IMG/VR virus record: IMGVR_UViG_3300032083_001808
Location: 1 to 29,615 of that record
Length of the DNA stretch: 29,615 bases
Strand: one strand, 5' to 3'
Origin: a virus
The position numbers were made by a program, and so were the translations under genes. Of this stretch, positions 34 to 27,475 are shown in pieces. Within the stretch, counting starts at the first letter, position 1. Each line of letters begins with the position of its first letter. The notes beneath the pieces are model-generated. The model saw only the letters and a program-made list of their open reading frames with translations, was not told the origin of the DNA and searched no databases.

Positions 34-42
34 TGGTATAAT
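34..42 (+). promoter_or_regulatory. Extended -10 promoter directly before the first virion gene
   Basis: The bases TGGTATAAT form a perfect extended -10 element (TGn plus TATAAT at 37-42). Only five bases separate it from the ATG at 48, and no Shine-Dalgarno sequence is visible. A transcript starting about seven bases after the -10 would begin at or next to the ATG, so this would be a leaderless promoter. No good -35 lies at the normal distance. The end of an upstream gene probably overlaps this stretch: frame 2 ends with TAA at 44-46 and frame 3 with TAG at 27-29. Confidence 0.5.
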
Positions 43-47
43 TTAAC

Positions 48-2228
48 ATGCCTTTATCAAAAGTAAATATAGCACCAGGGTTCGATAAACAATCTACACC
101 AGCAGACGCAGAAGGTCGTTGGGTGGATGGTGACAATGTGCGTTTTAGATATGGTGAACCAGAAAAAATAGGGGGCTGGTCTGCTTTATGTAGTGACAAA
201 ATTGTTGGTGCTGCAAGACAACAACATGTTTGGGCTGATATTTCAGGAAAAAGATATGCAGCGATAGGTACAAATAAAGTTTTAACAATTTATTACGAAG
301 GTGTTCTTTACGATATAACACCTTTAGAAACAGATAATTTCTCTACAGGTGCAAACATAACAACGACTAATGCATCAGCTATAGTTACAATTACTACAAG
401 CTCTGCACACAATCTTGAAGTAGGAGAATTGACTACCTTCGCTAATGCAGGATCTTTTACTGCGGGACAAACAGGTTACACAGCGTCAGATTTTGATGAT
501 AAAGTTTTCGAAGTACAAACAACACCATCATTTACAACATTTACAATTTTAATGCCTTCAGTAGAATCAGGTTCAGGAACAACGAACAACGGAACATTAG
601 ATGTTAATCCTTACCAACCCGTAGGTCCTTTAAATCAAACTTATGGATATGGTTGGGGTACGTATTTATTTGGCGGAAGAACTATTGCGCAAAGTACAAC
701 AACAATGAATAACAGCGGTAACATGTTAGTAGGCGATACCAGTGTAGTTCTTACAGCTACATCTTCATTCCCAGCAACGGGTTCAATAAGAATTGGATCT
801 GAAGACATGTCTTACACTGCAAATGACACAGGTACAAATACACTTAGCGGAATTACAAGGGGTATTAATGGAACGACTGCAGTTGAACATACAAATGGAG
901 CAACAGTAACTGATATATCTAGCTACATAGGATGGGGTGACGCTTCATCTTCAAGCACAGTAACTATTGATCCTGCAATGTGGTCTTTAGAAAACTTTGG
1001 TGATATTTTAATAGCAACAATTCATAATGGAAAAACATTTACCTGGAACCCCTCAGCAGGTAACGCATTAAATACGAGAGCAACCATTGGCACAGGTATG
1101 CCAACAGCATCAGTAATGACTATAGTATCAGACAGAGACAGGCATTTATTTCATTTAGGTACAGAAACTACAATTGGAACTTCAACAACACAAGATAAAA
1201 TGTTTATAAGATTTTCTGATCAAGAAAGTTTGAGTGATTATCAACCAACTTCAACAAATACTGCTGGTACTTTTAGACTTGATGATGGCACAAGAATAAT
1301 AGGAGCCATAAAAGGTAAAGATTATATTTTAGTTCTTACCGACACAGCTGCATATGAAATGCAATTTGTTGGACCACCATTTACTTTTTCAATTAGGAAA
1401 GTTGGTTCTAACAACGGACTATTAGGGCAAAACGCAGGTGTGTTTGCAAACGGTGCGGTATATTGGATGGGTAAAACAGGAGGGTTCTATGTTTATGATG
1501 GTACTGTAAAATCACTACCTTGTTTAGTAGAAGACTTTGTTTTTACAACTGACGGTAATAATCCAGGTATAAATTATAATTCAGGGCAATTAGTTTTTGG
1601 AGGTATTAATGAACTATACTCAGAAATTAATTGGTTTTACCCTTCTGCTGGTTCTTTAGTTGTTGATAGGGTTGTAACTTATAATTTTGACGAACAAGTT
1701 TGGACGACAGGAACTCTAGATAGAACAACTTGGGTGGGTTCAACAGTTTACGAACAACCTTATGCTACAGATTACAATGCTTCAGACACACCAACTTTTC
1801 CAGTAGTAAATGGTGTTTCTAATGGGGCATCTATTTATTATGAACATGAAGTAGGTGTAAATCAATTAAATGGTGATGGATCTTCAACAGCAATTACATC
1901 TTTTATAAAATCAGGAGAGTTTGATTTAAATGGTAATGCAGGTGTTCCAGGAGATGGAGAATTTTTAATGAGTATTAAAAGGTTTTTACCAGACTTTAAA
2001 CGTATAAGTGGTAACGCAAAAGTAACTATATTTTTAAATGAGTTTCCTCAAGGAACAACTTCAACATCAAGTCCTTTAGGACCTTTTACAATAAACTCAA
2101 GCACATCTAAAGTTGATACAAGAGCAAGAGCAAGGTTAGCTGCTGTTCAAATTGAAAATGAAAATTTAGATGAGAGCTGGAGATACGGTACGTTTAGATT
2201 TGATGTTAGAGTGGATGGTAGAAGATAA
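48..2228 (+). CDS. Large virion protein, probable tail or head-completion (DNA-stabilisation) protein
   Basis: This 726-residue protein opens with a stretch (PGFDKQSTP, then GRWVDGDNVRFRYGEPEKIGGW) that I recognise from large structural proteins of marine podovirus-like phages. These are often annotated as packaged-DNA stabilisation or tail tubular-like proteins. It is rich in Thr, Ser, Gly and Asn with long beta-type segments and no signal peptide or membrane span, as expected for a virion protein. It heads a block of structural genes, and its stop overlaps the next start by one base (TAATG). The start is fixed by the ATG just after a TATAAT box; no Shine-Dalgarno is present. A virion role is strongly suggested by context and N-terminal signature. 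The exact place in the particle is not shown by the sequence. Confidence 0.75.
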   Translation: MPLSKVNIAPGFDKQSTPADAEGRWVDGDNVRFRYGEPEKIGGWSALCSDKIVGAARQQHVWADISGKRYAAIGTNKVLTIYYEGVLYDITPLETDNFSTGANITTTNASAIVTITTSSAHNLEVGELTTFANAGSFTAGQTGYTASDFDDKVFEVQTTPSFTTFTILMPSVESGSGTTNNGTLDVNPYQPVGPLNQTYGYGWGTYLFGGRTIAQSTTTMNNSGNMLVGDTSVVLTATSSFPATGSIRIGSEDMSYTANDTGTNTLSGITRGINGTTAVEHTNGATVTDISSYIGWGDASSSSTVTIDPAMWSLENFGDILIATIHNGKTFTWNPSAGNALNTRATIGTGMPTASVMTIVSDRDRHLFHLGTETTIGTSTTQDKMFIRFSDQESLSDYQPTSTNTAGTFRLDDGTRIIGAIKGKDYILVLTDTAAYEMQFVGPPFTFSIRKVGSNNGLLGQNAGVFANGAVYWMGKTGGFYVYDGTVKSLPCLVEDFVFTTDGNNPGINYNSGQLVFGGINELYSEINWFYPSAGSLVVDRVVTYNFDEQVWTTGTLDRTTWVGSTVYEQPYATDYNASDTPTFPVVNGVSNGASIYYEHEVGVNQLNGDGSSTAITSFIKSGEFDLNGNAGVPGDGEFLMSIKRFLPDFKRISGNAKVTIFLNEFPQGTTSTSSPLGPFTINSSTSKVDTRARARLAAVQIENENLDESWRYGTFRFDVRVDGRR

Positions 2229-3976: not shown

Positions 3977-4781
3977 ACCAATTTGGTTTGGTAAAAACGA
4001 AAAAACAGAACCTAAAACAAAAAGTAAGTATAGATTTTTTGTAGGCACTCCTGTTCATAGCGATGTATCCATACATTATTTTCAAGCTTGTCTAGAGTTT
4101 CAAAAACAATGTATGAAGAAAGATGTATTAACTTGTTTTCAAGTAATGAAATCTTCTTTAGTTACTCAAGGTAGAAATTTATGTGTGTCTAGTTTTATGG
4201 AGACAGATAGTACACATTTATTATTTATTGATTCAGACATAGATTTTGATAGTGAATCTATATTTAAAATGGCAGACACAAACAAAGATGTCATATCAGT
4301 GCCTTACCCACTAAAGACTTTTAACTGGGAAAAAGGTTTTAATAAAGTCAAAACAGGTATAATTAAAAATGCTGAAGATCTTAAATATAAAGGCTTCTAT
4401 CAATATCCTATGAAAGTAAAAGACGAGCAGAATATAAAGATGGATAAAAATGGAGTTATTGAAGTTACTCATTCACCTACGGGATGTATGCTAATAAAAA
4501 GAGAAGTTATTGAAAAGATGATTAAAGCTTATCCTGAAAAAGAGATAATACAAAAAACTATTATTAACGGTAAAATGGAAACAAAACCATATTTATACAA
4601 TCTTTTTGACACTGATTTTGATCCTGAAACTAAAACTTATTTAGGAGAAGACTTTGCTTTTTGTAAGAGATGGAAAAATATAGGTGGTAAATGTCATGCT
4701 CTTATAACAGAGAAAATAAGTCATATAGGAGAACACCAATATAGAGGGTCTTTTTCCGATGAGTTGTCAAAGACCTCATAA
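3960..4781 (+). CDS. GT-A fold glycosyltransferase-like protein
   Basis: The 273-residue product has the layout of small viral GT-A glycosyltransferases. An N-terminal strand (RFFVGTPVHSDVS) precedes a DxD metal and nucleotide-sugar motif in LLFIDSDIDF (D91, D93, D95), and a late acidic motif in LGEDFAFCKRW (E230, D231) could supply the catalytic base. A His-containing segment (SHIGEHQYRG) near the end could complete the site. It overlaps the preceding GT4-like gene by 17 bases and the pair is surely co-translated, suggesting successive sugar additions. A weakly AT-rich 46-base gap separates it from the next structural gene. The enzyme class is well supported; donor and acceptor are unknown. 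Confidence 0.8.
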   Translation: MQDPSKPIWFGKNEKTEPKTKSKYRFFVGTPVHSDVSIHYFQACLEFQKQCMKKDVLTCFQVMKSSLVTQGRNLCVSSFMETDSTHLLFIDSDIDFDSESIFKMADTNKDVISVPYPLKTFNWEKGFNKVKTGIIKNAEDLKYKGFYQYPMKVKDEQNIKMDKNGVIEVTHSPTGCMLIKREVIEKMIKAYPEKEIIQKTIINGKMETKPYLYNLFDTDFDPETKTYLGEDFAFCKRWKNIGGKCHALITEKISHIGEHQYRGSFSDELSKTS

Positions 4782-25523: not shown

Positions 25524-25526
25524 AAA

Positions 25527-25556
25527 AAGGCCGCTTCAGTCTCCCTACACGGCCTT
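25527..25556 (+). repeat. GC-rich hairpin AAGGCCG / CGGCCTT
   Basis: Seven-base perfect arms (25527-25533 and 25550-25556) enclose a 16-base loop in otherwise AT-rich sequence. The downstream bases are AT-rich but not a T run, so it is not a standard terminator. Confidence 0.55.
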
Positions 25557-25673
25557 GAGATATTATATATAAACACCAGAATTATATCATTGTCTGGTTG
25601 AAAATCAAACAAATGCGGGTATTAGATTATTAGGGGGTAATGCATAATGCGTAAATAATACAACCTAGATGTG

Positions 25674-25727
25674 TAGGGGTTTAATTTTCTACTATATAGA
25701 TTATCTAGACCCCTATGCACTTTTTTT
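25674..25727 (+). terminator. Stem followed by T run, possible terminator
   Basis: TAGGGGT (25674-25680) pairs with ACCCCTA (25709-25715) across a 28-base loop, and TTTTTTT follows at 25721-25727. The loop is long and the stem short, so termination is possible but not certain. Confidence 0.35.
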
Positions 25728-25743
25728 AATCACGACCCTAAAG

Positions 25744-25849
25744 TGGTGTATCTGGTGTATCTGATGATTATTATTGTTGTATATCAACACTTCTAGACGA
25801 TTTAGTGGTGTATCTGATGGTGTATCCGTGGTGTATCTAGATACACCAC
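25744..25849 (+). repeat. Iteron-like array of TGGTGTATC with terminal palindrome
   Basis: TGGTGTATC occurs exactly five times in direct orientation: 25744-25752, 25753-25761 (immediately adjacent), 25806-25814, 25818-25826 and 25829-25837. One inverted copy, GATACACCA, lies at 25840-25848. The last direct copy and the inverted copy form a perfect 22-base palindrome (25828-25849: arms GTGGTGTATC and GATACACCAC around TA). Such arrays are typical of initiator or repressor binding sites. The region lies 85 bases before the next gene. Confidence 0.85.
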
Positions 25850-25920
25850 AATATCAATATTTCCTTGCGTAGTGTAAAAATGTTGATTTGGGTATAGTAG
25901 TCGGGGGTTAAAATAATCTA

Positions 25921-25926
25921 TATAAT
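25921..25926 (+). promoter_or_regulatory. TATAAT box seven bases before an operon start
   Basis: A perfect TATAAT stands seven bases before the ATG at 25934, with no Shine-Dalgarno between them and no clear -35 at the usual distance. It would drive the 25934-28338 operon, and the message would start at or next to the ATG. The iteron-like array ends 71 bases upstream and could supply an activator or repressor site. Confidence 0.5.
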
Positions 25927-25933
25927 AGAATTT

Positions 25934-26293
25934 ATGGTCGCAAGAACACTCATAAAAGCTGGCATAGCTTATGGTAAGAAAAAAGCCCGTGAAAGAGCTG
26001 CAAGAAAAACAACTAAAAGCTTGGATAAGTACAATATTCACGCTGGTGGTAAAAGCTCTAAAGGCCCAGTACCTATAAAAAATCAATCCCTTCAAAAAAG
26101 CACATTGAGTGGTAGGACTTATTCTATTAGTAATAGTAATCTATCTTCAAAAACTATGATATCATTGGGTGGCCCATATGGGCAAAGCACTACAGCAAGA
26201 TTTCAAGACAGTGTGAAAGACTTGATTGGTTTAGATAGTGTAAGTATAAGAAAAGCACAGAAAAAATTATTTAAAAGAAAGAAAAAGAAATGA
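25934..26293 (+). CDS. Basic hypothetical protein (119 aa)
   Basis: The 119-residue protein is strongly basic at both ends (AYGKKKARERAARKTTKS near the start; KAQKKLFKRKKKK at the end). A Ser/Gly/Asn-rich middle (RTYSISNSNLSSKTMISLGG) lies between. No membrane span or known domain. It opens an operon leading to the small terminase gene. The charge suggests DNA or RNA binding, possibly a packaged or packaging-associated protein. The start follows a TATAAT box by seven bases. Confidence 0.65.
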   Translation: MVARTLIKAGIAYGKKKARERAARKTTKSLDKYNIHAGGKSSKGPVPIKNQSLQKSTLSGRTYSISNSNLSSKTMISLGGPYGQSTTARFQDSVKDLIGLDSVSIRKAQKKLFKRKKKK

Positions 26294-26568
26294 ATAAAAA
26301 ACCTGTAAAAAAACTATTAGGTGGATTACTTACAGCTGGTATCAAATATGCTACTAAAAAATATATGAAAGAAAGTGGTAGATCTATTTCTAAACTAACA
26401 AAATTACAACCTAAACTTTCTAAAAATAAAAGAGCTGGTGCTAAACTAGATATGGCTACTGCTATTCAAACACAAGGCCAAAAGGGTATAATTAATCCTA
26501 AAGGTTTGACTATGAATGACATAAATAAATTACAAACTTATAAAAACAAACTACCAAGGACATATTAA
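26290..26568 (+). CDS. Basic hypothetical protein (92 aa)
   Basis: Starting in an ATGA overlap, the 92-residue protein begins MNKKPVKKLLGGLLTAGIKYATKKYMKE, an amphipathic basic helix, and continues Lys-rich through LTKLQPKLSKNKRAGAKL. It shares the Lys-rich, Gly-turn style of its two neighbours, and the three may derive from one ancestral gene. No family is recognised. The stop overlaps the next ATG by one base. Confidence 0.65.
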   Translation: MNKKPVKKLLGGLLTAGIKYATKKYMKESGRSISKLTKLQPKLSKNKRAGAKLDMATAIQTQGQKGIINPKGLTMNDINKLQTYKNKLPRTY

Positions 26569-26954
26569 TGAAATCAGGTAAATATTTAGCAGGCGGGTTA
26601 ATTAGAGGCACTGGTGGTAAAGCTGTAAAATCTTTTATGAAATCAGATATTTATAAAAAACTTAAGGGCGACATGATGAGTAAAATTAATAAAATGTATA
26701 GCTCAGGCCCAGGAAATACTCCAAGTAATAAAACTTTTTTAAAAGGTTTAAAGAAGTTAGATGTTAAAAACCAAAAAGCACAAATGATTGGTAAGGCCTT
26801 AAGTCATGTTGGAGACAGCACTAGAAAATTACCTAGAAATATTCAAGCATCATTAAAAAGAGGTGCTAGAAACATTAAGAAGTACCAAACTAAAATAGAA
26901 GATACAGCTGGTGCTTATTTGAAAAAAAGATTTAGCAAAGCAAGGGATAACTAA
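26568..26954 (+). CDS. Basic hypothetical protein (128 aa)
   Basis: The 128-residue product begins MKSGKYLAGGLIRGTGGKAV and stays basic to the end (SLKRGARNIKKYQTKIED, KKRFSKARDN). Like the two preceding proteins it has an amphipathic N-terminal helix with Gly-Gly and many Lys. It ends in a TAATG overlap with the small terminase gene, so expression is coupled to packaging genes. Function unknown; nucleic-acid binding is inferred from charge. Confidence 0.65.
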   Translation: MKSGKYLAGGLIRGTGGKAVKSFMKSDIYKKLKGDMMSKINKMYSSGPGNTPSNKTFLKGLKKLDVKNQKAQMIGKALSHVGDSTRKLPRNIQASLKRGARNIKKYQTKIEDTAGAYLKKRFSKARDN

Positions 26955-27475
26955 TGGCTCTTAAAGCAAAAGCATTAAGAACAATAGACGATCTGACTCC
27001 AAAGCAAAGGAAGTTTGTAGACATACTTGTAGCTAATTGGGGCGAGATTACAAAAGCCGAAGCTTGTAAAAGAGCTGGATATGAAGCAAAGAATGATAAG
27101 AACTTTTCTGACATAGGTAGTAGATTAACTTTAAGACGACACAATCCACACGTAGTTAAATATTTGGATCAACAGCTTGAAAAAGCTAGAGCTAAATATG
27201 AGAAGGATAGACTACGTAGATACAAAAGATTAGAAAAATATGCTGACAATGCATTTGCAGATAAGCAATATGCATCAGCTATTAATGCAGAGTTTAGATC
27301 AGGCCAACTAGCTGGTTTATATGTAGATAAGAAAGAAGTAAAAGTATCAGGATTGGAGGGTATGTCACGTGCAGAGCTTGAAAAGAAACTCACAGAGCTT
27401 TCAAACAAGATCGATGGATTTAACGCCAAAACGATCGAAGTTAAGCCAGAGACAAAAGAACTACCTGAAAAGTAA
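26954..27475 (+). CDS. terS: Terminase small subunit
   Basis: The 173-residue protein has the typical small-terminase N-terminal domain: LTPKQRKFVDILVANWG, then ITKAEACKRAGYEAK (helix-turn-helix), a serine/Arg turn and NPHVVKYLDQQLEKARAKY. A long helical oligomerisation region follows. It should recognise the packaging site on phage DNA and load the large subunit. An AGGGAT ribosome site lies before the start, which overlaps the previous stop (TAATG). The large terminase is not in the window. Because packaging sites often lie in or near terS, the repeat-rich sequence downstream is of interest. Confidence 0.85.
   Translation: MALKAKALRTIDDLTPKQRKFVDILVANWGEITKAEACKRAGYEAKNDKNFSDIGSRLTLRRHNPHVVKYLDQQLEKARAKYEKDRLRRYKRLEKYADNAFADKQYASAINAEFRSGQLAGLYVDKKEVKVSGLEGMSRAELEKKLTELSNKIDGFNAKTIEVKPETKELPEK

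What the first reader, a model, noticed from the sequence alone, without database searches (positions are those of the whole stretch)
25744..25849. Iteron-like TGGTGTATC array with a 22-base perfect palindrome
Five direct and one inverted exact copies of a nonamer lie within 106 bases of non-coding sequence, two copies immediately adjacent. No gene explains them. They resemble iterons of an origin or a cooperative repressor/activator site controlling the TATAAT box at 25921. The binding protein is unidentified.
Basis: seen in the sequence. Interest (0 to 1): 0.75.

Follow-up and report, generated by a model that had tools for sequence, protein, structure and literature searches.

The report
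Probable phage DNA-packaging start site
Six copies of one short DNA word beside the small-terminase gene of an ocean (SAR11-type) virus look like the landing pad where its packaging protein marks viral DNA for loading into the shell; related viruses keep the layout but change the word in nearly all copies together, which makes an old question (how this protein reads DNA) testable.

Summary
No Markov-simulated window held more than 3 copies in such a span. The window is a fragment of an HTVC023P-type pelagiphage. The array is conserved: 51 public viral contigs hold the palindrome, and the 8-nt core GGTGTATC is invariant in all copies of 38 haplotypes. In the long relatives it clusters only here, upstream of terS. 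Diverged relatives keep the geometry but change the core nearly in concert: GGTGGGTC, CTAGGAAA (including isolate HTVC023P), GTGACA. A clustered array lies upstream of 165 of 169 testable terS loci (not all independent) and in 0 of 216 control stretches. TerS is SPP1/SF6-like (Terminase_2; DNA-binding-domain model matches 2CMP, Z 8.9). The segment covering its recognition helix tracks core type best of all windows tested, though this is confounded with phylogeny. Best reading: a pac-like packaging-initiation site bound by TerS, overlapping the terS-operon promoter. The iteron-origin reading is not supported; a promoter-control role remains possible. Binding and cleavage are inferred, not shown. 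New variant of a known kind.

The parts
25524..25554 (-). Terminator-like hairpin for leftward transcription: stem GGCCG/CGGCC (25529-25554), then a T-run on the - strand (25528-25524)
   Evidence: Sequence; stem varies on both sides in relatives (GGCCG/CGGCC, GGGCG/CGCCC, GGGGGC/GCCCCC) with a constant GGGAGACTGAA loop; absent or different in others
25686..25712 (-). Left outer box, outward-facing, promoter-like (GGGGTCTAGATAATCTATATAGTAGAA on the - strand)
   Evidence: 85% match to the right box; mean identity 0.92 in 38 haplotypes against 0.52 just left of it
25744..25752 (+). Array copy 1, TGGTGTATC
   Evidence: Exact; invariant in 38 haplotypes
25753..25761 (+). Array copy 2, TGGTGTATC
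   Evidence: Exact; invariant
25763..25805 (.). AT-rich conserved spacer with TATATCAACACTTCTAGA (25780-25797); possible bend or cleavage segment
   Evidence: Mean identity 0.89; a similar motif recurs in the spacers of several other core families
25806..25814 (+). Array copy 3, TGGTGTATC (8-nt core invariant, first letter variable)
25818..25826 (+). Array copy 4, TGGTGTATC (8-nt core invariant, first letter variable)
25829..25837 (+). Array copy 5, left half of the palindrome
25840..25848 (-). Array copy 6, inverted; with copy 5 it forms the palindrome 25828-25849
25864..25874 (+). CTTGCGTAGTG, near-invariant motif right of the array; role unknown
   Evidence: Mean identity 0.99; CTTGCGG or CTTACGG at a similar place under cores II and IV
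25904..25930 (+). Right outer box with TATAAT (25921-25926): probable promoter of the terS operon
   Evidence: Mean identity 0.97; start codons 5-8 nt after the box in many relatives, terS itself first in some
25934..26954 (+). Three small basic ORFs (25934-26293, 26290-26568, 26568-26954): variable cargo between element and terS
   Evidence: No Pfam or PHROG match; absent or different in relatives with the same array
26954..27475 (+). terS, small terminase subunit, the proposed binder; recognition helix about residues 48-58 (nt 27095-27127)
   Evidence: Pfam Terminase_2 26.6 bits, cut-off 26.1; PHROG terminase small subunit; DNA-binding-domain model matches 2cmp, Z 8.9, rmsd 1.6 over 56 residues

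Best explanation
The element 25686-25930 is the packaging-initiation (pac-like) site of this pelagiphage and overlaps the promoter of the terS operon. The phage's own small terminase TerS, probably a ring displaying several helix-turn-helix motifs as in its SF6/SPP1 relatives, binds the GGTGTATC octamers. The copies lie roughly on one face of the helix in two clusters, so a TerS assembly can engage both and fold or wrap the AT-rich spacer between them. TerS then places TerL to make the first cut, probably in or near the element, and headful packaging starts. Binding upstream of the terS promoter would also let TerS tune its own operon. Shown: exact array, conservation, near-concerted core changes on a constant geometry, constant link to terS, SF6-type TerS DNA-binding domain. 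Inferred: TerS binding, cleavage, wrapping, headful mode, autoregulation.
For: Clustered array upstream of 165 of 169 terS loci with enough upstream DNA (three of them just beyond the 1.4-kb cut), 0 of 216 control stretches. The cluster occurs at this one locus only. Nearly all copies change together between lineages: GGTGTATC, GGTGGGTC, CTAGGAAA, GTGACA. Copy geometry kept, spacer length differing by about one helical turn, starts in helical phase. terS is the constant downstream gene while 0-1.3 kb of cargo varies. TerS DNA-binding domain matches the SF6/SPP1 small terminase. Residues 49-60, the recognition helix (residues 48-58 in the model), best separate same-core from different-core TerS pairs. 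SPP1 pac likewise has repeats overlapping the terS promoter, with TerS bound on both sides of the cut (PMC4737164, PMC6316719). Published HTVC023P-type genomes circularise, compatible with permuted headful DNA (PMC9599517).
Against: No binding, footprint or virion-end data. Core type follows TerS phylogeny, so the helix-3 signal is confounded; window 85-96 scores nearly as high, and two lineages with TAGGAAA-type arrays (L254, L262) have a different helix-3 start. Some core-II arrays are mixed. SF6 TerS DNA-binding domain bound pac DNA with little specificity (PMC4737164), unlike what is proposed here. The paired outer boxes, which also change together, are not explained by packaging. HTVC027P and 023Pt_psg01, in the same group, show no obvious array, nor does one lineage, L289-L292.
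Confidence: 0.68

Rival explanations
1. Transcription-control region: the outer boxes are divergent promoters (right: terS operon; left: a short RNA ending at the 25554-25524 terminator), and the array is a cooperative operator or upstream activating array for a phage regulator that need not be TerS.
For: Promoter-like boxes on both sides, alike within each lineage; start codons directly after the right box; a leftward terminator hairpin with two-sided stem changes in many relatives.
Against: The octamer clusters at one locus only, so it is no regulon site; copies lie about 70 nt or more upstream of the right TATAAT and about 50 nt from the left box; the constant gene is terS. Not exclusive of the best explanation.
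Confidence: 0.2
2. Lambda-type cosB: TerS sites beside a fixed cohesive-end site, with a bending protein in the spacer.
For: Lambda cosB has three TerS sites split by an IHF bend site (PMC4856287); here two clusters are split by a conserved spacer.
Against: No IHF consensus above background in the element; dozens of contigs run straight through the element and near-complete contigs end at varied distances from terS; published genomes circularise (PMC9599517); the TerS DNA-binding domain is SF6/SPP1-like.
Confidence: 0.07
3. Iteron-type replication origin bound by a phage initiator.
For: Direct repeats plus an inverted pair in AT-rich non-coding DNA.
Against: No initiator-like gene recognised among the window genes scanned; irregular spacing; no GC-skew switch in HTVC023P; the array stays upstream of terS, not of replication genes.
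Confidence: 0.05

Closest known systems
SPP1 / SF6 pac site with gp1 (G1P) TerS
   Same: TerS with the same DNA-binding-domain fold; repeats around the promoter and start of terS; two site regions (pacL, pacR) around a central segment
   Different: Here one exact octamer in six phased copies, with near-concerted switching between lineages; SPP1 boxes A-C differ from each other and SF6 DNA-binding domain showed little specificity for them; 0-1.3 kb of cargo genes may separate the site from terS
Lambda cosB (R3-I1-R2-R1)
   Same: Repeated TerS sites split by a spacer that is bent in lambda
   Different: No IHF match here, no evidence of fixed cohesive ends, different TerS family (winged HTH in lambda)
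Iteron plasmid or phage origins
   Same: Short direct repeats plus an inverted pair in non-coding AT-rich DNA
   Different: No initiator gene recognised, irregular spacing, linked to terS, no skew switch

Membership tests
SPP1-type pac site | Partner TerS of the SPP1/SF6 (Terminase_2) family | tested here: met
   Pfam PF03592 26.6 bits, cut-off 26.1; 2cmp, 4zc3 and 3zqq at Z 8.2-8.9
SPP1-type pac site | Repeats at the promoter / upstream of terS | tested here: met
   165 of 169 loci, 0 of 216 controls; right box 5 nt before the terS start in L064
SPP1-type pac site | TerS binds the repeats | not testable with these tools
   Only indirect: recognition-helix tracking, confounded with phylogeny
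SPP1-type pac site | TerL makes the first cut at or in the site; series of virion ends starts there | not testable with these tools
   No virion read data
SPP1-type pac site | Headful packaging, circularly permuted virion DNA | tested here: inconclusive
   Published genomes circularise (PMC9599517); contigs end at varied places; both fit but do not prove it
Lambda-type cosB | IHF site between TerS sites | tested here: not met
   Best consensus matches 12 of 13, no more than expected from the window background
Lambda-type cosB | Fixed cohesive ends beside the site | tested here: inconclusive
   Many contigs run through the element
Iteron replication origin | Initiator gene encoded by the element | tested here: inconclusive
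   None recognised among the window genes scanned, but the window is half a genome and many genes have no match
Iteron replication origin | Regularly spaced tandem iterons | tested here: not met
   Spacings 9, 53, 12, 11
Iteron replication origin | GC-skew switch at the locus | tested here: not met
   Monotonic cumulative skew through the locus in HTVC023P; a weak criterion for a phage with nearly all genes on one strand
Regulon operator | Same array at several promoters of the genome | tested here: not met
   In four long relatives the cluster occurs only at this locus, with at most two isolated single copies elsewhere; same in the window

The most novel reading that the evidence does not exclude
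HTVC023P-type pelagiphages carry a modular, sequence-specific pac code: a constant, helically phased six-site scaffold whose octamer switches almost as a set together with the recognition helix of an SPP1-type TerS. That would make TerS of a headful packager a sequence reader, and the natural core and TerS pairs would be a ready-made test of how TerS rings recognise DNA.
Probability: 0.45. Interest if true: 0.75.

Novelty: new variant of a known kind. Interest (0 to 1): 0.6.

Why it matters
How TerS of headful packagers recognises its pac site is described as unresolved in a recent review (PMC9611059), partly because model TerS proteins bind pac weakly and without specificity. This locus offers many natural TerS and array pairs in four or more core classes, with a cultured member (HTVC023P), so specificity can be tested by swapping arrays or recognition helices in vitro. 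[quoted passage not shown]

Tried and rejected
IHF site in the spacer: first suspected from TATCAACACTT, rejected because consensus scores are no better than background. Known RNA family: no Rfam match in the window or locally. Replication origin by GC skew: no switch. Whole-TerS fold search: no useful match (pTM 0.50); the DNA-binding domain alone worked on the second look, while plain Foldseek ranked it poorly. PDB sequence search gave only a weak 2cmp hit, E 0.37. DNA search of annotated phages with the element: chance hits only. Array upstream of TerS in HTVC027P and 023Pt_psg01: not seen by eye; in Phage DSL-LC04 the outer inverted boxes are seen but no clear array. Contig breakpoints near the array as a terminus signal: not used, because a conserved element in variable surroundings breaks assemblies by itself. 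Cargo ORFs as the binder: disfavoured, as relatives with the same array lack them next to it.

Full report
OBSERVATION. The array is real and exact. TGGTGTATC occurs at 25744, 25753, 25806, 25818 and 25829 on the + strand and at 25840-25848 on the - strand, and nowhere else exactly in the window. The last two copies form a 22-nt palindrome, 25828-25849. In 200 first-order Markov simulations of the window no 9-mer reached more than 3 copies in 106 nt; the palindrome alone would be less remarkable. TATAAT stands at 25921-25926.

WHERE IT IS. The window is a fragment of a phage related to Pelagibacter phage HTVC023P (DNA polymerase 62% identical; TerS 53%; the assembly is a linear virus record). 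The array lies in a gap of about 550 nt without recognised genes, upstream of three small ORFs and terS (26954-27475; Pfam Terminase_2).

CONSERVATION. A collection scan for TGGTGTATCNNGATACACCA found 51 viral contigs. An alignment of 38 distinct haplotypes shows that the conserved unit is about 245 bp, 25686-25930. Mean identity to the window is 0.52 left of it, 0.92 in the left box, 0.99 over copies 1-2, 0.94 over copies 3-6, 0.97 in the right box and 0.54 at the gene start beyond. The octamer GGTGTATC is invariant in every copy of every haplotype, while the letter before copies 3 and 4 varies; copies 5-6 were part of the selection, copies 1-4 were not. In four long relatives the octamer cluster and the outer boxes occur once.

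THE KEY RESULT. Relatives with more distant TerS keep the layout and change the word. Contigs with TerS 70-80% identical keep both outer boxes but read GGTGGGTC/GACCCACC, in L085 at all six copies; some members mix GGTGGGTC, ATGGGTC and GGTGTCCC. HTVC023P itself and about 60 relatives carry CTAGGAAA, with sublineages in which nearly all copies read CTAAGAAA (L191) or CTGGGAAA-like (L198). A fourth group carries GTGACA-type words. Copy starts relative to the first are: I 0,9,62,74,85,95(-); II (L085) 0,9,73,85,96,107(-); III (L126) 0,8,52,63,84 plus an inverted copy near 72; IV (L258) 0,9,60(-),83,93,102, with a further copy at 18. The spacer between clusters changes by about one helical turn, and the starts cluster on one helical face (p about 0.01-0.05 each; not independent). 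A spacer motif like TATATCAACACTTCTAGA recurs under different cores. Of 169 terS loci with enough upstream DNA, 165 have a clustered array (162 within 1.4 kb plus three just beyond) and the four without form one distant lineage; 0 of 216 control stretches downstream of terS have one (some loci are overlapping or near-identical contigs).

WHO BINDS. Dispersed 8-nt copies changing nearly together, while the letters around them do not, is what one trans-acting protein would leave. TerS is the candidate: the stretch between the right box and terS ranges from nothing (start codon 5 nt after AATCTATATAATA) to 1.3 kb of differing small ORFs, so terS is the constant partner. The DNA-binding-domain model of TerS (pLDDT 90) matches the SF6 small-terminase DNA-binding domain 2cmp with Z 8.9, rmsd 1.6 over 56 residues; other TerS structures follow and unrelated folds fall to Z about 3. 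In a sliding-window comparison the 12 residues that best separate same-core from different-core pairs, after correcting for the rest of the protein, are 49-60, which covers helix 3, residues 48-58 in the full-length model. This is suggestive only: core type and phylogeny are confounded, another window (85-96) is close behind, and two lineages with TAGGAAA-type arrays have a different helix-3 start.

HOW IT PROBABLY WORKS. In SPP1 the pac sequence contains direct repeats, overlaps the terS promoters and gene start, and is bound by TerS on both sides of the segment that TerL cuts (PMC4737164, PMC6316719). The pelagiphage element has the same parts: an SPP1-type TerS, two site clusters around an AT-rich conserved spacer, and the promoter of the terS operon at its edge. 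I therefore propose that a TerS oligomer docks on the phased octamers, bends or wraps the spacer, and positions TerL for the first cut, after which headful packaging runs. Published HTVC023P-type genomes circularise (PMC9599517), which fits permuted DNA. Binding, cutting and direction of packaging are inferred.

OUTER BOXES AND LEFT SIDE. The element is bounded by two outward-facing boxes that resemble each other within each lineage but differ between lineages. The right one looks like a promoter whose transcripts would be leaderless. The left one faces a hypervariable stretch followed, in many core-I relatives, by a terminator-like hairpin with two-sided stem changes and a constant loop, so a short leftward RNA is possible. 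Why both boxes change together is not explained by the packaging model.

KNOWN OR NEW. It works like a pac site and probably is one; membership cannot be settled without TerS binding and virion-end data. It differs from the studied SPP1 site in having one exact, swappable word. No paper in the library searched describes it, though many subscription papers are not held there. I rate it a new variant of a known kind.

Noticed in passing
window 25524-25687 (- strand) and left flanks of relatives: Possible leftward short RNA: promoter-like left box, hypervariable body, terminator hairpin with two-sided stem changes and a constant GGGAGACTGAA loop in many core-I relatives; core-II relatives have other strong leftward terminators.
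   Followed up: partly
window 37-50, 4358-4371, 25921-25936: TATAAT lies 5-7 nt before an ATG in several places; with the start codons directly after the right box in relatives this hints at leaderless mRNAs in this phage.
   Followed up: partly
window 25934-26954: Three small basic ORFs between the element and terS begin with similar K/G-rich starts and look like diverged copies of one another; relatives carry other sets or none.
   Followed up: partly
L294 (Phage DSL-LC04), - strand about 2270-2040: A gammaproteobacterial phage with TerS 33% identical has a pair of outward-facing inverted boxes (GAGAGTGTATCTATAGGAA-like) upstream of its TerS operon, without a clear array.
   Followed up: partly
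window 25864-25874: CTTGCGTAGTG is almost invariant just right of the array, with CTTGCGG/CTTACGG at a similar place under cores II and IV; role unknown, a cleavage or TerL contact site is possible.
   Followed up: no
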